NCBI GenBank assembly: GCA_030568195.1
Contig: JAJLTO010000001.1
Coordinates: 992,001-1,056,000, forward strand
DNA from: Dipodascopsis uninucleata var. uninucleata
Lineage: Eukaryota > Ascomycota > Lipomycetes > Lipomycetales > Lipomycetaceae
Direction of reading: 5' to 3'
Length of the DNA: 64,000 nt
Made by a program: the position numbers and the translations under genes. The notes under the pieces are model-generated. The model was given only the letters and a program-made list of their open reading frames with translations. It was not told where the DNA came from and searched no databases. Positions 9,886 through 49,857 of this stretch are shown piece by piece (the stretch's first letter is position 1; each line of letters begins with the position of its first letter).

Positions 9886-10105
9886 TGTAGCAGATACTAG
9901 AATACGATTAATTTACAATCGCAAGGTGACAAGATATTAGACTATTGGCACTCTTATACAGTAATACTATAGCCGCTGTGTGTAGAACTACAAACGGACC
10001 AAGAGAAGACTTGGAGGCCCTTTTATACCATCTAGACGATTGTTGTGACATAATTATAGGACCAAGCAATAGTTACAAGGTTGATAGGACACGATATGCC
10101 AAATT

Positions 10106-10221
10106 GATAAGAACAAACTCAGAATTCTTTCTTAATTAAAAGTAAGTGAAATCAGGAGAGTAATCAAACCGTAAAAACTAGTTATATGCTATCCGCTTTG
10201 ATAAGTAAAAAACAGTTTATC
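10106..10221. promoter_or_regulatory. GATA-type sites upstream of the permease gene
   Basis: GATAAG occurs at 10106-10111 and 10200-10205 on the plus strand and GATAA at 10217-10221 on the minus strand, 220 to 335 bases before the permease start. GATA factors (AreA, Gln3, Gat1) bind such clusters in promoters of nitrogen-catabolite-repressed genes. The core is short and common in AT-rich DNA, so this is suggestive only. Confidence 0.3.
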
Positions 10222-10271
10222 AAAATGTAGCGTCAAACACAGATGTAAAAGTTTAAGGATGCGGTATATAC

Positions 10272-10420
10272 TTGAGCAAGTTCGTATCTTAGTATCTCAG
10301 TTGATCTACAGAAAGCTCTTTCTTTGGTGGTTAGATCCATCTTTGGAGCAAATAATGCTGCAAAAATTGTCAAGACAAAATTCTTCACAGCAATAGGAAT
10401 CGATTCAACCACACAGTCCA
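10272..10420 (-). other. Possible orphan exon with consensus branch site (uncertain)
   Basis: Read on the minus strand, a consensus branch site (TACTAAC) followed 11 bases later by an acceptor (aatag) precedes an open stretch beginning DCVVESIPIAVK and containing MDLTTKERAFC; it ends at a possible donor (CAA|GTATAT). Just upstream (minus strand, from about 10555) is an ATG-led frame starting MDPINPKSG. I could not join the two in a convincing phase and recognise no family. It may be chance or the remains of a gene. Confidence 0.15.
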
Positions 10421-11511
10421 CTATTATATTTGGTTAGTAGTTAAATTTAGCTGCGGAGCGTTTAACTGCATATAATGCGTTTACTGCTAGAATGCTAGTC
10501 CTTTTAAGGTAATGCGCCGATGGTGGCACTCCACTTTTGGGATTAATAGGGTCCATAGACTTTAAGATTAAAGCTTATATATCCTTATCTCTTCGGGAAT
10601 CCTGCCCTTTGAGGTATAACTCGCGCTAATAGAGAATGCCCGGCAGAACACCAACATTGAAGGCTCAACTATGCTGCCACAGAGGCGTTAATGGCTGCAG
10701 TTAGCGTTGAAACAGAACAGGCGAGTCCGCGAAAAGGCCTATGAGTCAATGTGGCAAAGGCTTGTCATTCTAGAGTAGAGACGCCTAATAAGCAAAAGGC
10801 GACGGATTCTGACAGTAGCTTTTCTCACTGTCCGCCCATGTATCAGCCATCTATTAGCCAAGAAGCCATATAGCTAAAATCACCATATTTGACATCTCTG
10901 AGCAAAATAGTTTCTAGCGCATTGACCTAAGTGAGCGATAGCCGTGCTTGCATTGCTACTTACTAGCACTTCTCGCAATTGCAAATTTAACAGCATTAAG
11001 ATTTACTGTTGGTTATTTTGCTGAAGCTATCTGGTCAAGTATTAGGAACCGTGAGTGGCGAGAACAAAGATAAGGATTATGACCGGAGGAGCATGATAGA
11101 TTTTAAAGTCAACTTAAATTTTTTGACTTCATCTGCTGAGTCGTACCATCAGAAATTGAGATCTTACGTCTCTAAATCTCCCCATTATGTGGCAGAATAA
11201 ACTACCCGAAGCTAGATGATTTTCAGCTACTGGCGGTTTCCTCAGAGGGAGGCAACAGCATTTCACTCTGCTTTCAGCATAGCCAAAACGCCTCTTTTAC
11301 TTTTGGTAATGCTAGTCAACCTCGCTCCTTTCGATGGCTTGACTCTAATTTCAAAGACTATGGAAAGCGGCATTCATAAACCGCGATTAAATATTGCAGT
11401 GTAAAATATGAGAAAATATTTTTTCCTACAGCTTATATTGTCAAAATCATATATTAATAGAACGATCATAGTAAAGAGTCATTATAAAATTTAAACAAAA
11501 TATTTAGCTTT

Positions 11512-13249
11512 TTAGACCATGTGGACACCAGCAATACCTGCGAAAGTTTTAGAAGCTTCAATGACAGATTCCTCAAATTGACGGCGGCCGATGACCTGTA
11601 TACCAACGTGGAATCCGTCATATGACTTGCTTCTGTCTTCAGGGAACATAGCTTCTAACTGATGCTCGTACGGTGTAACCGGTTTTGGAAATTCGAACTT
11701 GTAAGTCTTCTTGGCAAGATCAATCTTCTCGATCGGAACAACAGATGCAGGATAGTCAAGAGTATTCCAGGCTAAAATACAGTCGTTTGAAGTTAGTGGC
11801 TCCTTTGGCCGGGGTAAAGCGGGCTGCGACGGGCAGATAATTAAATCTATGGGCTCTTTAGTAGTGGTCTTAGAAGCAGTAGAGTTCCAGTACTCGAGCC
11901 ACTCCTTCTGCATCTTCTGACGGTTGTCAGTAAGTTGGAAGAACTCAGCCATATCCACTGGCTCAGACGGATACAAGCCACCATTCTGGACAGCATTAGT
12001 GAGAGGTTCGCCAGTCTCTTCGCATTGCTTAAGTAAAAATTTTCCACCATCGGCCTGGTAGAATCGGCTGGCATTAGCAGCCAACTCAGAAGACTTAAGC
12101 AATTCAACATCAACCAATTCATAGCCTGCTGCAGTAAGTTTCTGAATAAATTCCTCATAAATAGACTTGATAGGCTCATAGAGGGTGATATCCTTAACAA
12201 CACCGATCTTGATCTTATTCGTTGAGAACTCAGATGCGTCAACCCAAGGCAAACGAGCACACGTAGGATCACTCAGCCATGGCTTTGTGTTGACAATGGA
12301 CTTAACGATTAGCTCTAAATCTCTAGCAGATGTTGTAATCGGTCCATCAACACAGAGAATTCCAGTAGCCTCTTCTCCGTCGGGCCAATAGTTTTTAATG
12401 TTATAGTAAGGAAGACGACCGGAAGAAGGCTTCATTCCAAAAGCGCCAGCACAGTAAGCTGGAACACGAATAGATCCTCCAATATCAGTAGCCATTCCAA
12501 CTAAAGATCCACGAAAGGCGACAATGGATCCAGCTCCACCAGAAGAACCGGCAGCAGTTAAGTACTTTGAGTGTGGATTTCTCGCAGGCCCGATCAAATT
12601 ATTCTCAGTGTCAAGAACCATCATAGACTGGGGAACAACAGTCTTAACATAAAGAACTGCACCTGCTTCCTCCAAAGCTTCAACAATAGTTGAGGAGGCA
12701 GGCTCAGGCTTGAAAGCATTAGCAGGAATACCAATGGCAGATTCAACACCCTTCAAGTTATAAGAGTCTTTAATTGATACCGGCAAACCATGAAGTGGAC
12801 CAATCGGCTTTCCATGTTCAGCAAAGTAACTATCAAGCTTCTTTGCAGTTTCGTAAGCGCGATCAAAGAACATCTCAGCGACACAGTTGACGCATTGAGA
12901 TGCAAGTGCAGCTCTCTGTAATAAGATGGCATGTGTTAGAATTATTTTGTATAAATAATACTGCTTATCCAACAGCTATAAACAGTCTATATGTAATACA
13001 TACCTTACAGAAAGCAATTGTGACCTGCAGAGCGGTATATTCTCCTTTATGGATACGCTCCAGGAGACCGACAGCATCATACTTTCCAGTGATTTCAATT
13101 TCTTCAGCGCTCAAGACTCCTGTAGTTTCAGCAAACTTCGTGAAATTATCAACATCTTCTGGAACAGAGATCTTCCATTCTGCAGGAATGGCATCTGCCA
13201 ACTGCTGTTTCTTTTTGGCTGAGATTGACTTGTACAATGGCTCTGACAT
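11512..13249 (-). CDS. Amidase-signature hydrolase (acetamidase/fatty-acid amidase-like)
   Basis: A 549-residue amidase that hydrolyses a carboxamide to acid and ammonia. Two minus-strand exons, 13249-13004 and 12915-11512, join in phase 0 (AFCK-RAALASQ); the intron has donor GTATGT, branch TCTAAC and acceptor tacag. The Ser-cisSer-Lys triad is intact: Lys131 in PVSIKDS, cis-Ser206 in AGSSGGAGS and nucleophile Ser230 in TDIGGSIRVPA. The spacing (75 and 24 residues) equals that of mammalian FAAH. Fungal relatives are acetamidase (amdS) and general amidases. The N-terminal 80 residues (SAKKKQQLADAIPAEW) are typical of the fungal subgroup. It is divergent from the isochorismatase fusion gene across 1 kb and lies next to an NCS1 permease. 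Substrate unknown. Confidence 0.88.
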
Positions 13250-14268
13250 TTTGAATTTATTTGCTGTCTCTATGGTTAAGAAAGTACGTTATGTAATAAA
13301 ATATCTGTAGGAGAAAAAATAATAGCAGACTAAGAGCTAGTCGGCGGAAGGCTTGACGTCCTGCTGGGTCATCCTTCAGCAGCCTATTGAGGCGCTCAAA
13401 GGTTCAGTCTTTCGACGTGTCCATGCTCTAGAGAAAACATTAGGCTTTTTAAGATTACCTTTGAGACTCCACTAAGTGCCGAACTTTAAAGTTCACATAC
13501 ATAATCTTATCTGGCATTTTGACTAAGTAAATTCGATGCTTTTTTGTGAGATATGCGGCTTAGCAGTTCTGCAACAGATTTCATTTTAATAAGGGTATTG
13601 TAGTGTATTTCCCCTGATGGCCTCCGGCAATTAATCTTTTTAATGACAGATAAGAATTATCTTAAAATTTTTTTGACAGTCCGCTGAAGGTGACATGAGA
13701 TGACTTGCTAAAAGACGCAGTGAACTTGGACTACGAAGAATAGAAATATTGTCGTTTCCTTATTAGGTGCTTTCTTAGGTCTATACATTTCTGTAAATGA
13801 GAATTTTAATCGTTGATAGCTGATGTTATGGCTATATCCAGGTATCGAAAGATGCGCATGCAAAAGCCCTAAATCCAGATTCACTTGAAATATACGTTGT
13901 AGTGATAGAGAAGAGATTATCTCTGTCATTGACGAACTGTAGCCAAAATAAAGCACTCAAGAGTCCACAATATTCGCAAGCAAAACAACTAGTATTATTG
14001 ATCCAATTTATATAACTATCGTAATCAAGATCATCATAAGGAAGACTGCAGATACTGTTTTTGGGAGTTTTGGCGGAGCTGACCGAACATAGTTCTCGCC
14101 AGTATCTCGACTAATGCTAAAAAAGCCCATACATAAGTTCTGCATAGTTAACTGTAATTATAATCGATAGACTAACTATTTGTACTTTATCAGTTCCAGC
14201 TTCAAATAATTTGTCGCTATTTATCACGATATATTAAAGACAGTATATTCATCTACGAAGTTATTGAA
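13250..14268. promoter_or_regulatory. Shared divergent promoter of two amide-hydrolase genes
   Basis: This 1019-base interval separates the minus-strand amidase from the plus-strand isochorismatase fusion gene. GATA-type hexamers lie at 13649-13654 (plus) and 13506-13511 (minus), with further GATAA cores on the minus strand at 13657-13661, 13917-13921, 14187-14191 and 14221-14225. The number of pentamer cores is not clearly above chance for such AT-rich DNA. The divergent layout itself is the stronger sign of joint control. Confidence 0.35.
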
Positions 14269-16140
14269 ATGCCAACTGCAACATTTTCACCCACCATTCA
14301 AATTACGAATGCTAGACCGGCAGCATTCCCGCTGCCAGTCGGTCGCACGGCATTAGTCATTGTCGATATGCAACGTGATTTCGTTCTTCCACAGGGTTAT
14401 GGAGCAGTTCAGTGCCCATCGCCAGAGATATTTGCTCAGGTGGCTTCTTTAATTGGTCCTTGTTTGACGGCCCTGAGGTCTGCTCGAAAACTAGGCATGA
14501 CAATTGTCCACACTCGTGAAGGACACCCTCCAGATCTGTCCGATTGTCCACAAACCAAGCTCGACCGTCAATTGAATGCTAATAAGAGACATGTCTTATG
14601 TATCGGCGATGAAGGTCCTATGGGTAGACTATTGGTACAGGGATCATATGGCCATGATATAGTTGATGAACTTACACCTCGTAAAGATGAAATTATTCTA
14701 GACAAGCCGGGAAAAGGCTCATTTTACAACACCGATTTACACGAGATTTTAGTGTCTCGTGGTGTCACACATATCCTGGTGTGCGGTGTCACTGCTGAAT
14801 GCTGCGTTGCTACAACATTTAGAGAAGCTAATGACCACGGCTTTGAATCTTGTGTATTGACTGACTGCACCGGTGGATTCAACGGTAGTATTGTATCTGC
14901 TACCTTAGATATGTTTTGTGCCTATGATGGTCTCCTTGGATACGCGACTACTTCCACTGAACTAGCTGCGATTGCGGATTTGGTAGAGCCAGGTGCTTTG
15001 GCTCTTAAGGAGCCTACCCCGACCAGCAGACTAGAGATTAAATCATTACATGATTCTTATATGTCAGGATCTTTAATTGTTTCAGAAGTCATTTCTCGAG
15101 TTTATGAGATGTTCGATGAATCTCGGTTTGAGCGCTTGATTCCAGTGGAGGATAATCTAGGAATCACTGCAAAATTAGACGATGATAAAAGCGTTGACGT
15201 TGATGGCGTGAAAGACATATCTCCTCTTTTTGGCGTCCCATTTGCTACCACTGCAGAATTTAATCCGTCAGCAGTAATTATTAAACAAGCAACTTCTATT
15301 GGAGCTGTCTATATTGGTGAGACAGTTTCATTAGATACTGCTATTGCTCTCATTGATGCTGGCGCTATATCGTTTGCTTTTACCTCTATGCCACCTCCAA
15401 TCAGTCTCCCGGGAAGTGTCATAGCATATACTACGACAAAGGGATCTCTTGCGTCTTTTGGTGTGTCGTTACCGTCTCCAAGCACATCTTCTATCACAAT
15501 TCTCTCAAGTACGGTCTTTGATGCTAGAACCATTTGGTCAACATTGGTTCGCATCAAGAATCCTGAAGTTGAACCATATTATCAGAAGTTTAGTCAAAGA
15601 CCAATAATAAGTATTGACTACAGAGGCTTCGAGCATGGTGGCATAAGATATGCTGTTCCTTCTATTACAGAGCTCTCTAAGCTTCTTTCAAGCGATGATG
15701 CTGCATCCGAATTTGAAAATATGGTAAAGAAGATTTTTACCCAGAAACTTTCCGGTAGATTGATTGAAACTGCACCGGTCGCTGAGACGCTCTTTTCAGC
15801 ATCAGTACTAGCAGCTCAAGAATGTAGTATGCTGTCAATTGAGACTGGAATGTCCAAAGGTTCTGGTAATTCTATTGCTGCTACAGAACTCATTATAAAC
15901 AATCAAGCTTTAGAGGCATTATATGCGAAGACAATTGCAATGTTCAATTCTGGAATCGACAGTCCAGATGTGGTCATTGTACCCTTGGCAGCTAAAGAAA
16001 CGCAAGACAAAGAGGTATTTGTAAGAGCTATTCAGGCGTTGAAACTTCCTGCTCTGGCTATTGATAACTTACTTTACGTCTGTCAAACTGGCGCCGACGT
16101 ACGTATACTGGACCTTGGTGTTATAATTCAAATGGATTGA
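14269..16140 (+). CDS. Isochorismatase-like hydrolase fused to a degenerate amidase domain
   Basis: A 623-residue intronless two-domain protein. Residues 1 to about 228 form a cysteine hydrolase of the isochorismatase superfamily with the expected triad: Asp33 (VIVDMQRDF), Lys146 (LDKPGKGSFYNTDL) and Cys179 (GVTAECCV). The spacing and the motif REANDHGFE are like biuret hydrolase and ureidoacrylate hydrolase. Residues about 245-623 align in my reading with the amidase part of allophanate hydrolase: a leading helical segment, PLFGVPFA, AGA and a region resembling its SLDCVSIFA..DA stretch. The amidase catalytic Lys (FATT instead of FAVK), the Ser-Ser-Gly motif and the GTDTAGS nucleophile loop are all missing. 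I infer an active biuret/ureide-type hydrolase carrying a pseudoenzyme amidase module. It sits opposite a complete amidase and near an NCS1 permease. Confidence 0.75.
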   Translation: MPTATFSPTIQITNARPAAFPLPVGRTALVIVDMQRDFVLPQGYGAVQCPSPEIFAQVASLIGPCLTALRSARKLGMTIVHTREGHPPDLSDCPQTKLDRQLNANKRHVLCIGDEGPMGRLLVQGSYGHDIVDELTPRKDEIILDKPGKGSFYNTDLHEILVSRGVTHILVCGVTAECCVATTFREANDHGFESCVLTDCTGGFNGSIVSATLDMFCAYDGLLGYATTSTELAAIADLVEPGALALKEPTPTSRLEIKSLHDSYMSGSLIVSEVISRVYEMFDESRFERLIPVEDNLGITAKLDDDKSVDVDGVKDISPLFGVPFATTAEFNPSAVIIKQATSIGAVYIGETVSLDTAIALIDAGAISFAFTSMPPPISLPGSVIAYTTTKGSLASFGVSLPSPSTSSITILSSTVFDARTIWSTLVRIKNPEVEPYYQKFSQRPIISIDYRGFEHGGIRYAVPSITELSKLLSSDDAASEFENMVKKIFTQKLSGRLIETAPVAETLFSASVLAAQECSMLSIETGMSKGSGNSIAATELIINNQALEALYAKTIAMFNSGIDSPDVVIVPLAAKETQDKEVFVRAIQALKLPALAIDNLLYVCQTGADVRILDLGVIIQMD

Positions 16141-16558
16141 GTTATGAGCCGTTATAGACTTATGAGCTAGCCTGACTTGTAAATTAGAGGCAACAATCAG
16201 TGTGTCATTCTAAGTAGTTTTCAGAAATAGGCAGGAATTCAATACATTAGTATTTATTTATTTTAAAGATATTCAGCGACTTCTAAAACAAATAAAACTT
16301 TTTTCTAGTCAAAAAATGTAATAGACCAAAATCATTAAGCTAACAAAGTGCTGCCTCCAAAAACCATTAACAAACTAAAGATCGGTAAACGTAGAACTGT
16401 CTAATGCGTTGAATACTTCTCATATTTAGTAGTAAAAAATCCAAAAATTCCATCGTTTTTAAACATGTATTAATTTAATCAAATTCTTGTCACTCATTAA
16501 ATTCGCTGTCATTAGTTAAACATGCAGTGACAACATGATGAAAGTGTTATAAACTTCT
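16141..16558. other. Convergent 3' regions
   Basis: These 418 bases lie between two convergent genes and are AT-rich with poly-A/poly-T tracts, as expected of 3' untranslated regions and terminators. No coding frame or RNA gene was seen. Confidence 0.4.
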
Positions 16559-19500
16559 TTAAGTACCATTAGTTCCTTCTTTTCCAGTTGCAGTACCACT
16601 TTTTGGTGTGGCTTTCACAACCTTGCCTACAATCCCGGACGAAGATGATTGTACAGCGGGTGTTGCTGGCGAGTCACTTTGATCCCTTTGGGGTGATAAA
16701 CTGATATCAGCCGTAAGATTTTCAGTATCTATCCAAGGATGAGAAAGCATCCGCATGTTGAAAATCTCTAGATTGTCCAATTCATCAATACCATTGCTAG
16801 CATGTTGAGAAATGACATGTGAGCGTCCTCCGGAAGCGAGACTCGAAAAGAAAATATCTCCATTATTTTCGCTAGTAGTGCTATCAGCTGCCATTGATTG
16901 GATGTTATGGTGCATATTTTGTTGACCAAGAAAACCAGGATTATGTAGCACAGGACCATGAGCCGAAGGTAGAATCACGGCTTGATCATTAATTAGACTA
17001 TTATCGCCAATATACTGAGAAATATCAGACATAGACATTTGTTGCAGATAATCTGCTGGAAGGTGCTGCTGTTGCAAATGATGATACTGCTGCATTGCGA
17101 CATTCTGAACCATGTGGCTATTGTTTCCAACTCCATGTTGATGCATCATAACAGGGACTTGTAAATCCTGGGATTGTACTTGAGACATCATCATTTGGTT
17201 TTCTACAGTATGGCTTTGATTTGTTAATAGTACATGCTGATCACTTGTAATCTGATTCTGCTGTCGTGATTGCGGAAACTCCGAAGGATATTGGAATCGC
17301 GGTTGTGACAATAGATGTGCCTGGTCTTGCATTTGTGGATGTACTTGCTGGCTATTATTCAATTGTGATGGATTAGAGTGATTCTGAGAACCAGAAGTTT
17401 GCATTGATTGTGGCATCTGCTGAGATTGTTGACTTTGCTGCTGTTTCATATTCTTCTTGCCAAGTTCTGATTTCAACAAGTATTTACATTCTTCAGCCCA
17501 AAGTATTGCATGTTGTAAGAATTCTGCACCACGAATATTAACCTTTAATGTCCATTGATATTCTGCAATCTTGTCGCTACACAGCTGTCTCTCAGCATCT
17601 GTACGAGCAGTTAAAAGAAGGAGAAAGCCAAATGTGACAATAACAGCGAAATTATTCTTAGAAGCGGCATACCAAAAAGTCTGGATATGCTGAGGTCTCA
17701 TACTGCTTGCAAAATCGACAGCAGCTACAAGCTCTGCCAGCGCGGAGCGATATACAAGATCATATATCTCCTCCAACATAGGAGATTGACTTACGTCAAT
17801 GTGTGAAAATGCCCTTAAAATAGGTCTAAACAATGCTATCTGCGCTGCATGACAACCAAGATGTAGATTACCATTTGCTGAAAGCTCTCCTAGAGTGATA
17901 TTCTCCATTTTAAGACAGTCGGGTAAATTCTCCATCCAATCTTTGATGCGTATCTGAAGGGGTCTTGCTCTTAATAATAGCTTCTTAATTCTTATCTCGT
18001 CAGAGTTTTCAGTCTCGTCTCCCAAGCTTTCGATATTAAAGTCAACAGGAACTTCCGGTGGCGGTAGAGGTTCACCTGACTTAACGTTTGAGCCTGTCGC
18101 CTTAGCCTGCGCTGAGGAACCTGATTCCCCAGCGGATGGTTTATCAGTAGATGATGAACTTGAATCGTCAGTCGGAAATCTGGAAAACAATTCGATCATA
18201 CTTCTGGCACTATGGAATTCGTCCAAGATATCGGATAGAATCTTGGTCAGCTTTACAAGCTCAAGAAACATGATTTTTCCAGTCTCACGATTAACACTTC
18301 CATGGCTGTCTATAGTACTAGCAATAACTTCGTCATCAGAATCATCAGGATTGTTCCCTGACATACTTAGATTATCTTCGTTGGGAAAATTTTCATCCGT
18401 AAGATCGGAAACAGTCCAATTAATTTTATCGATTTTTGAAGGACGTCCAAATGTCAATGCCATCCATTTATCTTGAATATAAAGTCCCCAAGCTAAGCGC
18501 TTTCGTAAACCTATCTCCCACTCTGGAATAGACCACTGCGTTGGGTCCATATGAAGACCAACCTCTTGCGCAATTGCAATTACTTCCCCCAGCATTGCCC
18601 AAGAATGACTTGGTCGAGTGACTTGATTACGAAATGTCTGATGTTGTAGTAATAGAATTCCTGCTTGAACAGTAGAAAGTGTGGGCCTGTCTATCTCACG
18701 ATAAAGATTGATTTGAGCTAGTGCTTCAAGTGTTGCTTGAGGTGGCCTGGGAAACGGAACAAGATCCGGATCGTATGTCCACCAATTAATGGCAAAAACA
18801 TAGAGGCCTGCTAATAGGGAAGGAGATAGCTCATATGGGTTCCTGTAGTATTTTTCTAAGAATTCTTCTTTATGTAAGATAGGTAAAGAGGGATGCATCA
18901 TACTGAAATATAAACCGATCAACTGACGACCGAATTTACCGATAATACTCTGTATTTTTCTGACTTCAACCAGATTTCCGCCAATGGTGTCGTCTCTACC
19001 AGATGGATTTGGATGGCCAGTCTTAAATAAATCCTCCGACTCGAACACAACAAATGATATCTGACTGTTTGCAGTTTCTTCTTGAATATTAGACTGTACC
19101 CGTCTGACTTGACGCTTTGTCTTGAAATCTGGTCCGACAACAGGCAAGCTTGCACGATCACGCGAATCAAAACCATAATGATCCATAAGGATTGGGTCAT
19201 GCTCGGCCGATGTACCAATGTACGAAATATACCTACGGCATTGCAAACCTAGAGTATTTCTCAGCAAGCTGTGCGGCAAGAAATCGTAATCTGGAAAGGG
19301 TGAGTCCGGAGTACCTGCAGACTGTGTGCCAGCGGCAGCGGCGGATCCATCACCTGCAGTTACATTTACCCCGTTTCCGGTAACATTAGCAGACGAAGAC
19401 CCAGTCGGTGTATTTCCAGAAGAAGTTTTTCTACTAAGTGCTCTATTTCTTACTCTCTTTCCCGTCGACGGGTCAACCTTAGGATCCTTTCTATCCGTAC

Positions 19501-19906
19501 CCAAGCTCAAAACACTGGACATCGATTGCATAGACGGTACTCCAGGCGATCCAGTAGCACCTCCAATGATTCCATCTGCCGCTGCAGACGGAGAAGTAGT
19601 ACCAGAAACTGCAGAGACGACATTTAAAGTATTAGTTAACTCATCTTTGTCTTTAGAATCTTTCTCTTTCTGACTGTCTTTGTCCCTATCCTTGTTGGCA
19701 TCATTTCCGTTACTATTTCTACGCTGTCTCTTTCTAGGTGCAGGGCTTTCACTGAAAATGCACTCATAATTATGAAACCGACATAAAAAACAGACAGTAT
19801 CATTCTCTGAAAAGACGCATCGGCTCTTTCGTCGGCGACAGGAATCACACGGCCGGTCTGGCCGCTTTAGACCAGTCTTGCTATGTGTCTTTTGTACAAC
19901 AAACAT
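16559..19906 (-). CDS. Zn2Cys6 transcription factor, DAL81/TamA-like
   Basis: A 1115-residue nuclear regulator without introns. The Zn2Cys6 cluster is at residues 20-49 (Cys20, 23, 30, 39, 42 and 49), preceded by GLKRPDRP and followed by a basic stretch (PRKRQRR). A Ser/Thr-rich linker with poly-acidic runs follows to about residue 200. RRYISYIGTSAEHDPILMD opens the middle region. The fungal-specific factor domain spans roughly 330-800 (MHPSLPILHKEEF, WGLYIQDKWMALTFGRPSKI). The last 250 residues are rich in Gln, His, Ser and Asn, a typical activation region. The zinc-finger flanks and the YIG..AEHDP segment recall A. nidulans TamA and yeast Dal81, co-activators of GABA, urea and allantoin catabolism. 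Its place beside a permease and two amide hydrolases fits that role. Orthology is inferred from memory of motifs. Confidence 0.72.
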   Translation of the reverse strand: MFVVQKTHSKTGLKRPDRPCDSCRRRKSRCVFSENDTVCFLCRFHNYECIFSESPAPRKRQRRNSNGNDANKDRDKDSQKEKDSKDKDELTNTLNVVSAVSGTTSPSAAADGIIGGATGSPGVPSMQSMSSVLSLGTDRKDPKVDPSTGKRVRNRALSRKTSSGNTPTGSSSANVTGNGVNVTAGDGSAAAAGTQSAGTPDSPFPDYDFLPHSLLRNTLGLQCRRYISYIGTSAEHDPILMDHYGFDSRDRASLPVVGPDFKTKRQVRRVQSNIQEETANSQISFVVFESEDLFKTGHPNPSGRDDTIGGNLVEVRKIQSIIGKFGRQLIGLYFSMMHPSLPILHKEEFLEKYYRNPYELSPSLLAGLYVFAINWWTYDPDLVPFPRPPQATLEALAQINLYREIDRPTLSTVQAGILLLQHQTFRNQVTRPSHSWAMLGEVIAIAQEVGLHMDPTQWSIPEWEIGLRKRLAWGLYIQDKWMALTFGRPSKIDKINWTVSDLTDENFPNEDNLSMSGNNPDDSDDEVIASTIDSHGSVNRETGKIMFLELVKLTKILSDILDEFHSARSMIELFSRFPTDDSSSSSTDKPSAGESGSSAQAKATGSNVKSGEPLPPPEVPVDFNIESLGDETENSDEIRIKKLLLRARPLQIRIKDWMENLPDCLKMENITLGELSANGNLHLGCHAAQIALFRPILRAFSHIDVSQSPMLEEIYDLVYRSALAELVAAVDFASSMRPQHIQTFWYAASKNNFAVIVTFGFLLLLTARTDAERQLCSDKIAEYQWTLKVNIRGAEFLQHAILWAEECKYLLKSELGKKNMKQQQSQQSQQMPQSMQTSGSQNHSNPSQLNNSQQVHPQMQDQAHLLSQPRFQYPSEFPQSRQQNQITSDQHVLLTNQSHTVENQMMMSQVQSQDLQVPVMMHQHGVGNNSHMVQNVAMQQYHHLQQQHLPADYLQQMSMSDISQYIGDNSLINDQAVILPSAHGPVLHNPGFLGQQNMHHNIQSMAADSTTSENNGDIFFSSLASGGRSHVISQHASNGIDELDNLEIFNMRMLSHPWIDTENLTADISLSPQRDQSDSPATPAVQSSSSGIVGKVVKATPKSGTATGKEGTNGT

Positions 19907-27801: not shown

Positions 27802-29202
27802 CTATGGTGATGCTGTACCTTGACTGCCATAAGACTCGAGCGAAGACGACATGTTTTCGGCTTCGTCCTCTACTTCCGCTTCAGCTTCGTTGACACTGGA
27901 TGATGAATGGTTCTCACTATCTTCACGAGATGAGCCTTCTGGTCTCGGAGTTAAGATAGTCCGAGGTAACGGAGGAGGAAGCATCGGAAATGACGGATTC
28001 CAAGCACTCGAGAAGCTGCCAAAGTTCGGCAGACCAGATTCCAGACTTCTAGACCATGCCTCTGATGAATCTGCAAGTCGTATGATCATCACCAATCCGT
28101 CAGAAGTTGAAAATACAATAGCTTGAAGGCGAATAGCAGGAGCCACTGATTCAGAGCTTCCAGTACTTCGCCGAGTCGTGGCGCTAGCAATCACTCTGTC
28201 GGAGTCACCATCGTAGGCAGTTGCAGTTGCAGTCGCAGCAGGTTCCGTTTGCATTCTAGTATCATTAGAGGTTTCTTCCGAAAGTGAGCTATCTGCAGAC
28301 GTATCGCCATCCGAAAGTGAAGTTGGATCACGCCAGTTGAACTGAAGATAAGCAACGGAGTCGTTCTCTTGAACCCGACGAATAGTGAGCTGTGCGGCTT
28401 CCAAACTTTCTCGGTCCAAACAATTCCAAAAAGAGCAGCCCCTTACGGATTCTGGCGTTGTCTGCGTCAGTTGTGTAAGAGAGCTCGTGGCATATAGGAT
28501 TGGTAAGGAAAGAGATGATCGGTTGATAATAAATAAAGTACGTAGTTCATGCTGGGGATTATTAGATACCTCATAGAGTGGCAGAGTATTTTCCTGATCG
28601 TTTCCACCAATGAGGTCAATCGGAGAATCGGTATCCAAAACACCCGTATGAGTAGAGGTCTCGCTAATACTCCTTCTCTCCTGTCTGCTACTATTCTGAC
28701 CACCTGTACGGTGGGTATGATTTATGTGCCTCTCACTAACATCACCGAGAGGAACACTGGCTTTTGGTTCATTCTCACTGGTAACTGCAACATCTGCATT
28801 TGAGCATTCGACATCTTCCGACTCGAATGAGTTGAATATCTTACTGATAGCTACCGCTGCTCGTCGCCGTGCTTCAGAATTAGTTGTGTCCTTGTGTACA
28901 CCTATGATGGACACAAGGATGTCGTAAACAGTCGTAAAGATCAAGTAACAAACTACCGAATCGCCATTCTTTTTCTGCATACGGCAGTGCACCATAATTG
29001 CAGCCCTATCACCTGTCACGCATTCACCTAATGCCTCACGAATAGAATAAAGATCATCCTGGTATATATGGTTGAAGAAGGAAGTACCTACTACCTCTTC
29101 AATCTCGTATCCCATTATATACTCCACAGACGGTGAAGCATACAGGATTCGCGATTCTGGAGTTAGATCATGGATCCCCAAAAAGGATCTAGATACATGC
29201 AT
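27802..29202 (-). CDS. Two-PAS-domain protein without a visible DNA-binding domain
   Basis: A 466-residue intronless protein. The first PAS domain fills residues 1-105 (LGIHDLTPESRILYASPSVEYIMGY in pieces, then EEVVGTSFFNHIYQDD and HCRMQKKNGDSVVCYL). A second PAS-like segment spans about 210-295 (LRTLFIINRSSLSLPILYATSS, in pieces, GCSFWNCLDRESLEAA). The layout recalls the fungal PAS proteins related to white-collar-type sensors. The GATA zinc finger of white collar proteins and the flavin-binding LOV cysteine motif are not present. The rest is Ser/Thr/Glu-rich and probably disordered, with a proline patch (PPPLPRTILTPRP) and an acidic tail. It probably acts as a sensor or partner protein; ligand unknown. 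Confidence 0.72.
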   Translation of the reverse strand: MHVSRSFLGIHDLTPESRILYASPSVEYIMGYEIEEVVGTSFFNHIYQDDLYSIREALGECVTGDRAAIMVHCRMQKKNGDSVVCYLIFTTVYDILVSIIGVHKDTTNSEARRRAAVAISKIFNSFESEDVECSNADVAVTSENEPKASVPLGDVSERHINHTHRTGGQNSSRQERRSISETSTHTGVLDTDSPIDLIGGNDQENTLPLYEVSNNPQHELRTLFIINRSSLSLPILYATSSLTQLTQTTPESVRGCSFWNCLDRESLEAAQLTIRRVQENDSVAYLQFNWRDPTSLSDGDTSADSSLSEETSNDTRMQTEPAATATATAYDGDSDRVIASATTRRSTGSSESVAPAIRLQAIVFSTSDGLVMIIRLADSSEAWSRSLESGLPNFGSFSSAWNPSFPMLPPPLPRTILTPRPEGSSREDSENHSSSSVNEAEAEVEDEAENMSSSLESYGSQGTASP

Positions 29203-29755
29203 TGTTAACTATCTGTTACTAAAGCTATCTTGATACGCAGGATGCGTCGAAAGAATTAAGACGGAAATATAAAAAATATTGATGTCTCTGCTTTAGAAAT
29301 TACCAGAAAACTCTTTAACAGATACTCACTGCTGCGAGGATCAATTTACTCAAAAGGAGCTTAAATAAAGGACTACTTACAGGTCCATCGATGCATAGAT
29401 ACTATTAAAAGACATCTCTAAGGCGCTCTGAGAGCATAAAGCGTCTTCATGAATATAGATTGTAAATAGAATTCAGATTTGTTCTCGACCTAAATGAGCT
29501 ATATTTCTGCTATAGCTAATACAAATAGATTCCACCAAACTCGAGTAGCATGTATCGACATAAGAGAACACAAAAGACTATCCGCCTCCTGGACCCTTGC
29601 ACACTGCTTTATCGTTTCCCCGATGCTCTCAAAATGTACTAAAGGAACAAACGGATCGGTAGAGTAGTAGTTGTGCTGTGTGCCTAACAAATTTTAGACT
29701 CTCCTATAGAACTTTGATCTGCCAAACACCAGAAGATTGTATACATATATCTATT

Positions 29756-31286: not shown

Positions 31287-32321
31287 AGAAGCAAGATATT
31301 TGCGGAATACTAGTGGGTGCTGGTCCTAGCTAACCGCCGGCCGCTTGGCGACAGCGCTTACAATCGGTAAATTAGAGCGATGCTGGGGCCCTCCAGTAGG
31401 AAATCAAACACGGCTAGATCTGCTGTGGTGAAGCGTTAGGTAAAACTCCATCTGACAAACCATGAATAGGCGCTTATGTATGGTAATATGCAGCGGCGAT
31501 GATGATCAGCAACGGTGGCTATCTGTTCTTTCTTCTTTCCGTGAGTTTTCCATGCTGAAATATGGGCGGGATGGAGCGTAATTATTGGTATTGCGGTTGT
31601 TCTGGTATTTTCGGTTACTGTTTAACTATAATATTGCTTTTTTTTATTGTAGTCTTGTATACTCACCTTTCTTTTTCTTCGCTCTTCCATCCTGGTTAAT
31701 TTTCCATATACTTTTTTAAACACCAAGTTTATTCCATTCCTGGCACTCCTTGGTCCACTACCAGAATTACATTATCTCCTATTTGTGACCTATGGTTCCT
31801 GGAAATAACTCGAGTGAGGAGTGGGCACCATTACTTTTGCAGCTCTAATTTCGCTTAATTAGGGCTGGCTAGCGTATTTTGTCGATTTAGGGTCATTCTT
31901 CCTGTTGCGACTCTTCCTGAACCTTCAACAAAGAAAAAGTTAACAACCTTTTATTTTTTTGCCTCCTTTTGTTGCGGTCACCGATCGTATTCTTAAGCAC
32001 ATTCACAAATGCTAGCTTACCAAAACGGTAAATCCACGAGTCATTGATGTCGCTTTCTGAATGACGTGAAGCGGTTAAATCGAGAGACTGCTAGCTGTCC
32101 TGAACACTATAGAAACTGTTATGCTGCTAGTGCTAGCGATTCAACTATAGCTATAGAGTAAGATTACACACACGAAACCCCTCCGCTGGTCTTGCTTCAA
32201 TCGCCAGTCACCGCCTATACCGCATTATTATAGTTAAACTTCTTATTTGACGATGAGAACTAGCCAAAGTATCTTCGTCGTATTAGGTCTATCAGCAGTT
32301 TAGCCTCTTTCGATTGCAGCT

Positions 32322-34526
32322 ATGAGATCATACAAAATAGAGAGTCTTGCTCGGGTGAGTAGTCAAAGGGAGTTTGTGCTCTGAGCAGCAGTTGCATGTG
32401 ATGTGTACACTAAGTGTATCCCTGTGAGCTTGCGATTTATCTTCCTAAAACAGAAAGTGTCTTTTGATAGACTTGTTGGACTTTGGTGTCCATAGGGAAG
32501 GTCATTCGACTACTACACAATTAGAACGTACCGTATTTCATGAGATCCAAATAAGCTAACGTAACTTTTCACACAGACAACTAATGTATCCATTTTCTAC
32601 TCGGTATCGTTTTGTCCGTTCCAGAACAGTAATAGTACACAAATATTTGCTACCATTGGCGATACATTTGTGATAGTTGGGGCCTGTGGACCCGGAATTT
32701 CTGGCGACGGGTCTGGTGATGCAGATCAGAAGCTTGAAATTCTCTCAACCTATTCTGACGACAACTCAGAAGAAAGTTTGTGTTCTGTATGTTGGCTGAA
32801 GAGTCCGGTAGATGGGAAGCCATTACTAGCCATTGGAGGCAAGTCTGGCGTCGTTAAGATTATTGATTGTTCTACTGGTAAGCTGGTCGCATCTATGAGA
32901 GGTCACGGCGACGAGATTCTTGATCTCCAGACTTCTCCCACGCACCCCCATATATTTGCATCGACGTCAGGTGATCATACCGTGAGAGTCTGGACTTTAG
33001 ACCCGATATACTCATCACAGCCTTGTATAGTCATTTGCGGAGGGGATTGCCATCGTGAGCAGGTCTTAACTTTGGCATTTCACGATTCAGGAAGGTTTAT
33101 CCTCTCCGGAGGAATGGACAACCAAGTTCATCTCTGGGCTCTGCCAAATCTTGACAGTCATCCGACAGGCTGCGACGAGCCACTTCTTCTGCATTGGTCT
33201 CACTTTTCTACGAGTGTTTTACACTCCAATTATGTAGATTGCGTAGCATTTTATGGTGACTTGATTCTTTCTAAGGCAGCTAATGAACACCGCATCGTTT
33301 TATGGAGGATAGATGGGTTCTCCTCGTCTATTGCGGATAGTCTAAGGCAAGACAATGCGCCCACGAACCATGACAAGTCGAAGGACACGCTGTCTGCTTT
33401 CGGATCAGGCTTTACCCGACTATTGCAATTCAGTATACCGAATACAGCACCGTGGTATATGCGTTTTGGCAAAATAACTGGTAGCACAGAATGCCCACCG
33501 CTAATTGGAATGGGTAGTGATTCGGCAAAAATTTATCTCTTCAACTTACGGTCCCTTGAGCCTGACAGCGTTGATGAGTCTTTCGACGGTCCTATATACA
33601 GCGATGACGAAAGCACATTGCATCCGTCAATTCGACAGGGAGCGGATGACCAGACACAGCAGCAAGATATCAAAGCGAGGCGTAAAAGAAAGCGAAGAGG
33701 TGCATCTTATTTTAGACCAACGAGAAGATATCAATCTCGGCAATCACGATCTTCTACTACTGCTATTAAAGAGTCATTCGTCGAAGAAGGAGGCATAGAA
33801 AGTGGTAGTGCGTCGGAAGATCGATTTGGTTCGCCTGACATGACGATTAAAACAGAAGATCAAGATGAATACACAGATATTATAGACTCCCAGAAAGCAG
33901 AGATGGCCAAGAAAGATAATCATGTCCATAGACGTGCAGATGATATTGTTGATGATAATGAAATAAACAAAGGAGATATTGTGGAAGATGAGGAGGTAAA
34001 GGAACAAGAAGGAAGCGAATACAGTTCAAGTGGGCACCATGATCACAGATTAGATATGGAGCGTAGCGTCTACATAGATGGAAATGCGGATATAGATATT
34101 AATTCTATCACCTCGAAGCAAAACGAAGAATTAAAAAACCTGTTTTCAGATGAGGATGATAATGGTATAATGTCTAAGAATTCGCTATCTCTCGAAGATG
34201 CCGATATTGAAAACACGATATCGTCAGAAATTCAGGCCACAGGAGTAGCATTGGAAGGCGCATTGTCATCCGTAAATCAAGCAGGGTTGAACGTTCAATT
34301 AGCCCCCTCTGCGTCCGTTGTGATAAATGAGGGTACAAGTGTCATCTCCGATCAATTTCAGGGCATTAGGCCGCATATGACCCTAGAAATATCAAAGTCC
34401 AAGAAGCTCATTCGTCATATTGCTTTCAGCCCTGGAGGACGTTATCTTATAGCTGTTGGCGACGGAGGAGTAATCTGTGTTTGGAGGGCCATCAAATCAG
34501 GTAATGGTCAGTCAGCAAAACGCTAA
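32322..34526 (+). CDS. EED/ESC-type WD40 subunit of Polycomb repressive complex 2
   Basis: A 660-residue WD40 protein read from two exons, 32322-32354 and 32577-34526, joined in phase 0; the 222-base intron has donor GTGAGT, branch GCTAAC and acceptor cacag. EED is the PRC2 subunit that supports EZH2-type methylation of histone H3 Lys27 and reads H3K27me3. Diagnostic text is present: FYSVSFCPF...IFATIG (blade 1), CSVCWLKSPVDGKPLLAIGG, NYVDCVAFYGDLILSKAANE followed by HRIVLWRIDGF (compare NYVDCVRWLGDLILSK in human EED), APWYMRFG with the conserved cage Trp, and AFSPGGRYLIAVGDGGVICVW in the last blade. A charged insertion of about 260 residues (basic KARRKRKRRG, then acidic) separates the last two blades. 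PRC2 is missing from S. cerevisiae and S. pombe, so this is notable. Family assignment by motif is strong. Confidence 0.85.
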
Positions 34527-34920: not shown

Positions 34921-35587
34921 TTAGGCCTCGGTCTCGTCAGCTTTTGGTTCAGCTTTAGAAGACTCTACCTTCTGCTTCTTTGCTGGTGGTGCTTCCTCAT
35001 CCTCTTTATCCTCTTTCTCATCGTGCTTATCGTCAGCAGTTTCCTTTTCAACCTTCTTGGTTCCATTTTTCTTTGCAGCTATAACATGACACGTGTTAAC
35101 ACAATACTCGAATAGCCAACAAGTCAATCACATAGCTTATATCAACAAATTCTATTTCTTACCTGGCTTCTTTGCATCAGTCTCTGCTTCAGCCTTATCG
35201 GCATCCTCAGTCTCCTCATCCTCGTCTTCCTCTTCATCCTCTTCTTCCTCAAAGTCTTCTTCTTCTTCCTCTTCTTCCTCATCATCAGACCCCGCCTCTG
35301 GATCGGTGTCTTCGTATTCTTCTTCTTCTTCCTCCTCGTCAGAAGGCAGAGCCTAATATCGTACAAAATCCCTGTCAGTAATCCATTGAGCTTACCATGG
35401 CATGATGGCCAATATCCATTTCCCAGACCTCTTTTCTCTATTTTTTGTCTACTTCTCCGCATTGACACAGGTACAATTGAACACCAGTAGATATATTATC
35501 ACTCCCATGCTTGCATTAGATGCAATCACTATATTGAATATCACTTACCTGCAACTCCTCATCTGGATCACCTCTTCGTCGAGACAT
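34921..35587 (-). CDS. Small acidic three-exon protein, probably nuclear
   Basis: Three minus-strand exons, 35587-35549, 35352-35163 and 35078-34921, join to a 128-residue protein. It starts MSRRRGDPDEELQ, continues with a central run dominated by Glu and Asp, and ends with a mixed Lys/Glu tail containing PAAKKNGTKKVEKE and a nuclear-signal-like PPAKKQKVE. Donors are GTAAGT and GTAAGA; acceptors are attag and tatag. The frame closes exactly across both joins, which supports the model. The composition is like histone-binding acidic chaperones, but I see no conserved CHZ, NAP or other motif, so the function is unknown. It diverges from PAN6 across 1.1 kb. Confidence 0.68.
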
Positions 35588-46787: not shown

Positions 46788-47427
46788 ATGGCTTCGTCAC
46801 AGTCAAATTCCAAAACGTCGACTGGAGGCAACAACTATTCCAATCAATCCGGTAATAAGCGAGGAGGAAGCAGCTCGACAAACTCTGCGGCAAATAGTAC
46901 TAGCAATAGCCACACAAATACCAATGCCAGTCAGAATGCGACCAGCGAGGATGTGCCGAGCCAGGATCCAGTAAGTGAAGCTAGCAATTACGCGAGAACC
47001 GGTTTCTCGCTATAAATTTATATGGCGAATTTGAGATACTAACGTTTTTCAAATAATTCAGCTGAACTTTGAGAGTTTCCCTGTTAGAGCGCTGAGAAAA
47101 TACAAAACTACTTATAATATGCCTGGGTTATCGTCGATCTCGGAAGCTGGTGCGCTCCTTAACGGATCGGTAGGGAAAAAAACGTACTCTTACAAACACA
47201 GGAACAGAATATCGAAGGAGGAGCTTGCAGGAAATGTCAAAAAGCATTTTACGGCTCAGACCACAAGAGAAACTGAGATGATCGCGTGCTTTTTGTATGC
47301 TACTAATAACCAAAGTGAGTATTTTGAGAGGGCAACTAGTGGTTTAGGCTGGCTATCATGGATACAGTACTAACGAAGGATCTAATCTACAGAGAACGCC
47401 TTTAAGCTCCACTTCCCCTTATCATAA
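46788..47427 (+). CDS. SAP30: Sap30-like subunit of the Sin3-Rpd3 histone deacetylase complex
   Basis: Three exons, 46788-46970, 47062-47314 and 47393-47427, give 156 residues. Sap30 bridges Sin3 and the Rpd3 deacetylase in the large corepressor complex. The N-terminal 60 residues are Ser/Asn/Gly-rich, as in yeast Sap30. The conserved part begins LNFESFPVRALRKYKTTYNM, continues with GALLNGSVGKKTYSYKHRNR and ISKEELAGNVKKHF, then IACFLYATNNQ, and is completed only by the 11-codon last exon (KNAFKLHFPLS), which matches the KNQKKKFKM end of the yeast protein. The second intron has a consensus TACTAAC branch site. The frame closes across both joins. Assignment is strong. Confidence 0.9.
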
Positions 47428-47938: not shown

Positions 47939-49857
47939 TCACTTTTTTTCATCGTCTTGATGAAAGATCTTTTTCATCGTCCTTTTCAAAAATCCTCCAG
48001 AACTATCAGAATCAGAACTTGAAGATGTAGAAGACGTAGAATCATTCTTATCCTGGTCAGTTGATGTAGAAGTCGGTGAAGACTCTGACGTAGACGAGTC
48101 CGACTTCGAGGATGTTGAGTTGGTTGATGTAGAAGATGATGGTTTCGGTCTATGACAAAAATAAGCATTAAATCGACATACGATATGCAATGGATAAAGA
48201 GAAAGTAAAGACACACAAGACAAAACACAATTACACCAAATAATGAACATAGACTTAAAATTATCCTTATGTATATAAAATACATCCCATAGAAAAAAGA
48301 GCAAGATAGGAAAATGGGGCAACTGTCACTCACTTGTCAGGACTAGGCGACTGTGTCTTTCTTGCAGTAGTATCATTAAAACTATCAGCCAACAGTTCAA
48401 GAAGTCTAGTTTGCTCCGCAGTAGTAGGCCTATAATCATCATAAGGGTTGTTAGTAATTGACCAATAAGTCAATCGAGCTCAAAATAGGAATATCAACTT
48501 ACCTTAGTGTCTTGACCTTAAATGTTATTTTATAATCTCCATTACGACCAGTGCGCTCCAACATTGGCAACCCCTTACCAGTCATAGTAATGACGGCTCC
48601 AGTCTGAGTGGCAGATGGAACATTGAGCTCAGCCTGACCCTCAAGAGTGGGAATTCTGACACGTCCACCGAGAGCAGCAGTAGTCATTGGAATTTCACAA
48701 TTATAGAAGAGAGTAGCACCCTTTCTACTAAATTCTGGGTGAGGTTGCACACGAACTCGAACATAGAGGTCACCACGATGTGTTCTAGTATTCTTATCGG
48801 CACGCACGCTTGGAGAATCACCTTCTCCAACAACCCTGAGACGCATTCCATCATCAATACCTCCTGGAATGTCAACAGTTGTTGTTTGAGACGATTTTAC
48901 TACACCTTCACCCGCACAAGACGAGCAAGATGAACTAGGATCTATATATACACCACTACCATTACAAGTCATGCAAGTAGTGGCGATTGTAAATCCACCT
49001 TGAGTCATCTGAACTTGTGTACCAGAGCCTCTGCATCGGGGACAAGTAGATCTCTTATGACCTGGCTTCAATCCACTGCCACTGCAGGTGTTACACACGA
49101 CTAGAGGATTGTATTTAACCTCAACCGATTTTCCCTTGGCTGCATCCATAAATGACAAAGTGAGAAGGACCTCAATATCGTCACCACGGAATTCCTGAAC
49201 CGTATCCTTGCGTCTTCCAGATCGACGGCCATTACCACCCCCAAACGCTGCATCAAATAAATCCTCGAAATCAAATGGCTCAGATTGATTAAAACCTCCA
49301 AAACCTCCAGAGAAATTGCTAAAAGGATTAAACGGACCGCCGTCTCCATTAGCACCTCCCGCAGCAGAGGGATCAAATGAGCTTGCGCCAAAAGTATCAA
49401 ACTGCTGCTTCTTTTGGGGATCAGATAAAATCTCATATGCAGCTTGGATGTCATGGAATTTCTTCTCAGCACCTGGCTCTTTGTTAACATCCGGATGATA
49501 TTTCTTAGCGAGCGAATAATAGGTTTTCTTAATTTCGGCAGTTGATGCAGTCTTACTCAGACCTAAAGTACCGTATGGATCAGTTTTTCCATCAAAAGCA
49601 ACATCACTTGTATGAAAACTTCGGGACCGGCTAAATTCGCCGAACTCATATATGAACTGGCCGTTAGTAGTCTTTCGGACTTGTGGTCTCTTAGACCCGT
49701 TTTGACCACCCGAATTGCTCAGATTCGAGCCTGTCGAGAAGCTATGAGCCCAGCCAGATCCTACTGATGGTCCAGTAGACTGCCAACATTGTACGATCTG
49801 TTTCAGACGGGGCCGAACAACCAATGATACCCTTGAATAGGCAGCGTTGAACGGCAT
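47939..49857 (-). CDS. MDJ1: Mitochondrial DnaJ chaperone Mdj1
   Basis: A type I J-protein that stimulates mitochondrial Hsp70 (Ssc1) in protein folding in the matrix. Three minus-strand exons, 49857-48503, 48429-48334 and 48149-47939, give 553 residues. Residues 1 to about 85 form an Arg/Ser-rich presequence. The J domain begins at about 93 (DPYGTLGL) with the HPD triad at 121-123. A Gly/Phe-rich region follows, then the four zinc-binding repeats CNTCSGSG, CPRCRGSG, CMTCNGSG and CSSCAGEG, and the substrate-binding C-terminal domains. The two small last exons add a Ser/Thr-rich linker and the tail GGFLKRTMKKIF, like the Mdj1 end. Donors GTAAGT and GTGAGT and a TTACTAAC branch support the joins. 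Confidence 0.92.

What the first reader, a model, noticed from the sequence alone, without database searches (positions are those of the whole stretch)
32322..34526. EED/ESC-type PRC2 subunit in a yeast-like ascomycete
The sequence shows EED-specific strings, not only generic WD repeats: NYVDCVAFYGDLILSK, RIVLWRIDGF, APWYMRFG. PRC2 is lost in S. cerevisiae and S. pombe, so its presence in a compact, intron-bearing yeast-like genome is informative. I infer that this lineage keeps, or has only partly lost, H3K27 methylation.
Basis: partly seen in the sequence, partly recalled or inferred. Interest (0 to 1): 0.75.

Follow-up and report, generated by a model that had tools for sequence, protein, structure and literature searches.

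The report
EED Polycomb subunit in an unplaced fungus
This stretch holds an intact fungal gene for EED, a core part of the gene-silencing Polycomb complex PRC2; it is ordinary for many fungi but would be noteworthy if, as some features hint but do not prove, the organism is a yeast from a group thought to have lost Polycomb.

Summary
Window 32322-34526 (+) reads as one intact gene: an 11-codon exon, a 222-nt intron and a long exon, 660 residues. Of 60 PDB sequences shown, the 25 best are all EED: 230 bits to Chaetomium EED, about 107 to human EED, 68.7 for the best non-EED protein. Identity is 125/311 to Chaetomium, 92/282 to human. The H3K27me3 cage maps to Y19, C80, W304, Y305; the Cys is shared with Chaetomium EED, which binds H3K27me3. 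A 273-residue insertion precedes the last blade, as recorded for fungal EED. So it is a new member of a known family, most likely a PRC2 subunit. Taxonomy is unresolved: SMC2 is about equally far from Saccharomyces and Chaetomium, a quartet had four informative sites, and PRP2 scores better to Chaetomium than to Saccharomyces. An early-branching yeast is plausible but unproven; an atypical Pezizomycotina fungus, where EED is routine, remains possible.

The parts
32322..32354 (+). EED exon 1, 11 codons (MRSYKIESLAR)
   Evidence: the only solution in the scan; no EED alignment reaches it
32355..32576 (+). GT-AG intron of 222 nt; a branch-like CTAAC ends 16 nt before the intron end
   Evidence: predicted, no transcript data
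32577..34526 (+). EED exon 2, residues 12-660 and stop
32577..33545 (+). WD40 propeller region before the insertion (residues 12-334); residues 14-334 match Chaetomium EED 76-396
   Evidence: (230 bits Chaetomium, about 107 human), identities
32598..32600 (+). Cage position Y19 (human F97, Chaetomium F81)
   Evidence: rows mapped; human F97 is the residue just before the printed human block
32781..32783 (+). Cage position C80 (human Y148; Chaetomium also Cys)
   Evidence: rows
33453..33458 (+). Cage positions W304-Y305 (human W364-Y365; Chaetomium F367-F368)
   Evidence: rows
33546..34364 (+). Insertion of 273 residues (335-607), rich in Ser, Asp and Glu, with a basic patch KARRKRKRRGASYFRPTRRYQSRQSR
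   Evidence: a long insertion in fungal EED is described in PMC8788455 and PMC7348808
34365..34526 (+). Putative last WD blade (residues 608-660) and stop
   Evidence: aligned to Chaetomium 551-590 but at only -0.2 bits; partial beta-propeller match in Pfam below its cut-off

Best explanation
The gene encodes the fungal EED/ESC subunit of PRC2. SHOWN: an intact EED-family WD40 protein with a fungal-type insertion before the last blade and cage positions compatible with methyl-lysine binding. INFERRED, from PRC2 biology: it folds into the propeller that binds an E(z)/KMT6 methyltransferase (which part of E(z) it holds is recalled, not tested), reads H3K27me3 in its cage and so stimulates E(z) to spread H3K27me3 over silenced regions; the insertion is a flexible, taxon-specific arm that may contact DNA or partners through its basic patch. 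INFERRED: because an intact EED is kept and EED and EZH genes coevolve, the genome probably still has an E(z) gene and H3K27 methylation.
For: PDB phmmer: the 25 top-ranked distinct sequences are EED, 230 bits Chaetomium, 107.5 to 103.6 for the other EED entries, 68.7 best non-EED. 40.2% identity over 311 aligned residues to Chaetomium EED, 32.6% over 282 to human. Cage: Y19, C80, W304, Y305; Chaetomium EED also has Cys at the Tyr148 position, and its structure binds H3K27me3 in a mode called identical to human EED (PMC13068663 passages); peptide in the EED cage of humanised Chaetomium PRC2 too (PMC6002473 passages). A long insertion near the C-terminus is recorded for fungal EED (PMC8788455, PMC7348808 passages). 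EZH1/2 and EED show significant coevolution in a 180-species panel (PMC10538959 passages). Intact frame of 660 codons.
Against: No E(z), SUZ12 or RbAp48 homologue could be looked for outside the window. The single-sequence fold was useless (pLDDT 35.1), so propeller and cage geometry are not modelled. No EED-specific Pfam model matched. The last blade aligns to Chaetomium EED only at -0.2 bits. The first 132 residues alone do not rank EED first. In PMC10538959 SUZ12 showed no significant linkage to the other subunits, which its authors put down to missed divergent orthologs. No expression data; no test of selection.
Confidence: 0.75

Rival explanations
1. It is a true EED, but the rest of PRC2 has been lost or altered; the protein is a leftover or has taken another role, for example as a reader of other methyl-lysines with a different partner.
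For: Its partners cannot be checked. Fungal PRC2 loss is repeated, and SUZ12 can be missing while EED stays, as in Cryptococcus (PMC8788455 and PMC7348808 passages).
Against: The frame is intact, the cage resembles Chaetomium apart from aromatic swaps, and EED and EZH coevolve (PMC10538959 passages).
Confidence: 0.18
2. The organism is a Pezizomycotina fungus with few introns rather than a yeast, so the gene is a routine occurrence. (This concerns the host and can hold together with the best explanation.)
For: PRP2 scores 920.5 bits to the Chaetomium construct (residues 235-878) against 755.7 to S. cerevisiae Prp2 (186-893). SMC2 pieces score better to Chaetomium than to S. cerevisiae in 2 of 3; in 117 SMC2 residues the window matches Chaetomium at 95 and S. 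cerevisiae at 87, and the quartet sites run 3 to 1 for Chaetomium. The best EED match is Chaetomium, but it is the only fungal EED among the 60 matches shown.
Against: Over 323 SMC2 head residues the identities are nearly equal: window-Sc 261, window-Ct 266, Sc-Ct 262; a close relative of Chaetomium should stand out. S. cerevisiae proteins may simply evolve faster (general knowledge). Several ORFs of 500 to 1115 codons run uninterrupted.
Confidence: 0.35
3. It is a WD40 protein of another family that only resembles EED.
For: Pfam lists only generic or other propeller families; the first 132 residues alone do not rank EED first.
Against: With the whole protein the 25 top PDB sequences are EED, with a gap from 103.6 bits (lowest of the 25) to 68.7; EED-type motifs and the fungal insertion are present.
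Confidence: 0.02

Closest known systems
Chaetomium thermophilum EED (PDB 5bjs, 5kjh, 5kkl and others)
   Same: Propeller sequence (40.2% over 311), Cys at the human Tyr148 position, insertion before the last blade
   Different: Insertion 273 residues here against 154 between the two aligned stretches in Chaetomium; W304-Y305 here (as in human) against Phe-Phe; no partner known here
Human EED (PDB 3iiw, 3jzn, 6c23 and others)
   Same: NYVDC...GDLILSK and WYMRF motifs, cage Trp364-Tyr365
   Different: Animal EED lacks the long insertion (PMC8788455 passages); Phe97 is Tyr and Tyr148 is Cys here
Cryptococcus neoformans Eed1, a PRC2 in a yeast-form fungus
   Same: PRC2 retained in a yeast-form fungus (PMC8788455, PMC7348808 passages)
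   Different: Cryptococcus is a basidiomycete without SUZ12; its sequence was not compared here
Lipomyces starkeyi HP1 and H3K9me heterochromatin
   Same: A Saccharomycotina yeast keeping a silencing system lost in most others (PMC7397231 passages)
   Different: That is H3K9; the term H3K27 occurs 0 times in that paper's main text. A relation of this window to Lipomyces is a guess

Membership tests
EED/ESC family of PRC2 subunits | WD40 propeller more similar to EED proteins than to any other WD40 family | tested here: met
   whole protein: the 25 top-ranked of 60 shown are EED; next family at 68.7 bits. PDB sequences only; no phylogeny was built, and the first 132 residues alone do not rank EED first
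EED/ESC family of PRC2 subunits | Aromatic cage for trimethyl-lysine (human F97, Y148, W364, Y365) | tested here: inconclusive
   Y19, C80, W304, Y305; three aromatic, one Cys as in Chaetomium EED, which binds the peptide; no binding test
EED/ESC family of PRC2 subunits | Fungal-type long insertion near the C-terminus | tested here: met
   residues 335-607; described for fungal EED in PMC8788455 and PMC7348808
EED/ESC family of PRC2 subunits | Complete seven-bladed propeller | tested here: inconclusive
   Residues 14-334 align; last blade only -0.2 bits to Chaetomium; model unusable
EED/ESC family of PRC2 subunits | Binds E(z)/EZH2 and is needed for H3K27 methylation | not testable with these tools
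   No genome held; needs experiment
Functional PRC2 in this organism | E(z) CXC-SET gene, SUZ12 VEFS gene, RbAp48 gene present | not testable with these tools
   Inside the window, 30 ORF pieces besides EED were scanned with Pfam (E 1e-5, 0.001); 24 matched something, none a SET, VEFS or further WD40 family. The rest of the 64 kb was not scanned
Yeast of Saccharomycotina or Taphrinomycotina | Gene trees place the contig there | tested here: inconclusive
   SMC2 head distances nearly equal; 4 informative quartet sites (1 with S. cerevisiae, 3 with Chaetomium, 0 with human); PRP2 nearer Chaetomium by score. No tree was built

The most novel reading that the evidence does not exclude
The window comes from an early-branching ascomycete yeast (for example a Lipomyces-type budding yeast or a Taphrinomycotina yeast) that still has PRC2 and H3K27 methylation. 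Polycomb would then have been lost after these yeast lineages arose, in several separate events, and not once before Saccharomycotina and Taphrinomycotina split, as one SET-domain survey suggested (PMC9692433 passages).
Probability: 0.45. Interest if true: 0.6.

Novelty: new member of a known kind. Interest (0 to 1): 0.4.

Why it matters
Passages seen here state that PRC2 subunits seem absent from Saccharomycotina and Schizosaccharomycetales (PMC8788455) and that no E(z) gene was found in the yeast-like fungi of one survey (PMC9692433). If the organism is such a yeast, it would help date the loss of Polycomb and give a simple system in which to ask what PRC2 does in a unicellular ascomycete. 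If it is a Pezizomycotina fungus, the gene is routine.

Tried and rejected
Another WD40 family: rejected on the gap, although the first 132 residues alone do not rank EED first. Loss of the cage through Tyr148 to Cys: rejected as a sign of lost function because Chaetomium EED has Cys there too and binds H3K27me3. A second donor (GTGAGC, 153-nt intron) seen did not survive the stop-free in-frame scan. Structure prediction from the single sequence: pLDDT 35.1, pTM 0.21, not used and not searched. Relatives in the prokaryote genome and viral collections: 25 and 6 pattern matches, none confirmed as a relative; these collections are not expected to hold fungi. NCBIfam, a prokaryote library: no family. 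Organism by tRNA or Rfam: no match in the window (ARAGORN ran with the bacterial code). Intron pattern at 9 gene junctions: matched at 4 (EED, prenyltransferase, one of three in SMC2, kinase), not at 5; not used for placement. CTG in EED: 2 of 6 codons face Leu in Chaetomium, the rest face Ser, Ile or Arg or are unaligned; in the SMC2 head 7 of 7 face Leu. SMC2 quartet: too few informative sites. Literature: PRC2 with Lipomyces 0 papers; Polycomb with Lipomyces 1 and H3K27 with Lipomyces 1, both seen as listings, unrelated by title. Searches (20 of 353 listed; 15 of 18,635; 12 of 15; 1 of 1) listed no title on an EED in an ascomycete yeast; one search listed 8 of 8, of which two were looked into. 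These searches cover open-licence PMC papers only, so absence from print is not claimed.

Full report
OBSERVATION. With exon 1 at 32322-32354 and a 222-nt GT-AG intron at 32355-32576 (GTGAGT donor, CTAAC branch-like site, CACACAG acceptor), the gene reads as 660 residues from the finding's exact start to its exact end. In a scan of ATGs in 32151-32420 and GTRNG donors, with one intron onto this one acceptor, this was the only in-frame, stop-free solution; without splicing the first Met is at codon 111 of the ORF, inside the propeller. No EED alignment listed reaches exon 1, so exon 1 is a prediction.

IDENTITY. phmmer against 177635 distinct PDB sequences gave 258 matches at E up to 1e-5, of which 60 were shown. 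The 25 best are all EED: Chaetomium EED 230 bits (E 6.7e-67), the other EED entries 107.5 to 103.6 bits; the best non-EED WD40 protein scores 68.7. From the printed rows, identity is 125 of 311 aligned residues to Chaetomium EED and 92 of 282 to human EED. A result on the other side: the first 132 residues alone do not rank EED first; three designed propellers score 61.2, 52.7 and 52.6 bits against 52.3 for Chaetomium EED, by adding up weak repeats, and several natural WD40 proteins score above human EED at 32.2 (60 of 94 shown). Pfam returns 24 families, generic or other beta-propeller models; only WD40 and ANAPC4_WD40 pass their curated cut-offs. No phylogeny was built.

ANATOMY. The four cage positions of human EED (F97, Y148, W364, Y365) map to Y19, C80, W304 and Y305. 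F97 lies one residue before the printed human block, so that mapping is by adjacency and by the Chaetomium row. Chaetomium EED also has Cys at the Tyr148 position, and Phe-Phe at the Trp-Tyr positions; its crystal structure binds H3K27me3 in a mode described as identical to human EED (PMC13068663, passages). So the Cys is no clear sign of lost reading. Between the two stretches that align to Chaetomium EED lie 273 residues (335-607), against 154 in Chaetomium. The part analysed (338-604) is 22% Asp/Glu and 11% Lys/Arg. A large insertion, conserved in place but not in sequence, is recorded for fungal EED (PMC8788455 and PMC7348808, passages). The putative last blade (IRHIAFSPGGRYLIAVGDGGVICVWR) aligns to Chaetomium EED only at -0.2 bits, with a partial, below-cut-off propeller match in Pfam. 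A single-sequence AlphaFold run failed (pLDDT 35.1).

SURROUNDINGS. Besides EED, 30 ORF pieces were scanned with Pfam; 24 matched a family, one of these (47942-48325) a low-complexity match. With the PDB searches they show an ordinary fungal neighbourhood: a prenyltransferase alpha subunit, two sugar transporters, dehydrogenases, a cytosine/purine-type permease, an amidase, an isochorismatase protein, a Fungal_trans regulator (its Zn-cluster read by eye), a PNGase A, a PAS protein, pantoate-beta-alanine ligase, a DUF1681 protein (NECAP-like, recalled), a DHX16/PRP2-type helicase, a RabGAP, a SAP30-type protein, a DnaJ, a CUE protein, SMC2, a protein kinase (AGC-type by eye), a CoA transferase and a PHD-finger protein. 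None of the matched pieces is a SET, VEFS or further WD40 protein.

ORGANISM. No whole genome is held. CTG faces Leu in both S. cerevisiae and Chaetomium rows at 7 of 7 sites of the SMC2 head; in EED 2 of 6 CTG codons face Leu in Chaetomium. Over 323 SMC2 head residues the window matches S. cerevisiae at 261 and Chaetomium at 266, while these two match each other at 262. Human SMC2 is further: 140.5, 131.1 and 131.7 bits in the three pieces, against 183.3, 174.3 and 164.7 for S. cerevisiae and about 180, 198 and 177 for Chaetomium. In a 117-residue quartet the window matches Chaetomium at 95, S. cerevisiae at 87 and human at 69, and only 4 sites are informative: 1 for window+S. cerevisiae, 3 for window+Chaetomium, 0 for window+human. 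PRP2 scores 920.5 bits to the Chaetomium construct and 755.7 to S. cerevisiae Prp2, over somewhat different spans; this leans away from S. cerevisiae, or reflects faster change in S. cerevisiae. Organism names of the SMC2 and PRP2 chains are recalled. Together this fits an ascomycete that is not close to Chaetomium, but it does not choose between early Saccharomycotina, Taphrinomycotina and an early Pezizomycotina lineage. Long uninterrupted ORFs lean towards a yeast; gene models were not built. No Taphrinomycotina or early-branching yeast sequence could be compared.

MECHANISM. Shown: an intact EED-family protein of fungal type. Inferred from established PRC2 biology: it binds E(z), reads H3K27me3 and stimulates further methylation. 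EZH1/2 and EED showed significant coevolution in a 180-species analysis, SUZ12 did not (PMC10538959, passages); so an intact EED makes an E(z) gene elsewhere likely, but nothing here shows it.

LITERATURE. A review states that PRC2 subunits seem absent in Schizosaccharomycetales, Saccharomycotina and Eurotiomycetidae (PMC8788455, passages). A SET-domain survey found no E(z) gene in its yeast-like fungi and suggested loss before the Saccharomycotina-Taphrinomycotina split (PMC9692433, passages). Lipomyces starkeyi, a Saccharomycotina yeast, keeps HP1 and H3K9 methylation (PMC7397231, passages), so retention of older silencing machinery in such a yeast has a precedent. Searches joining Lipomyces with PRC2, Polycomb or H3K27 found nothing on point by title.

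VERDICT. A real EED, a new member of a known family, probably part of a working PRC2. The evolutionary claim is interesting only if the host is a yeast of a group thought to lack Polycomb, which these data allow but do not establish.

Noticed in passing
window 8224-19906: A purine/cytosine-type permease, an amidase, an isochorismatase protein with a long C-terminal half that Pfam does not match at 1e-5, and a fungal Zn-cluster-type regulator lie together; possibly a nitrogen-scavenging cluster.
   Followed up: partly
window 62442-62780: A PHD-finger piece about 28 kb from EED; of this gene's neighbourhood only 62442-62780 and 62812-63126 were scanned, without a BAH match, so an EPR-1-type H3K27me3 reader is neither shown nor excluded.
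   Followed up: partly
window 47035-47370: A SAP30-type Sin3-binding domain, 46.8 bits to a PDB SAP30, a further chromatin-silencing component nearby.
   Followed up: partly
window 27805-29208: A PAS-domain protein piece of 468 residues; partners and function unknown.
   Followed up: no
window 34921-35352 (-): Two very acidic, low-complexity ORF pieces just downstream of EED on the other strand, convergent with it; no Pfam match for either.
   Followed up: no
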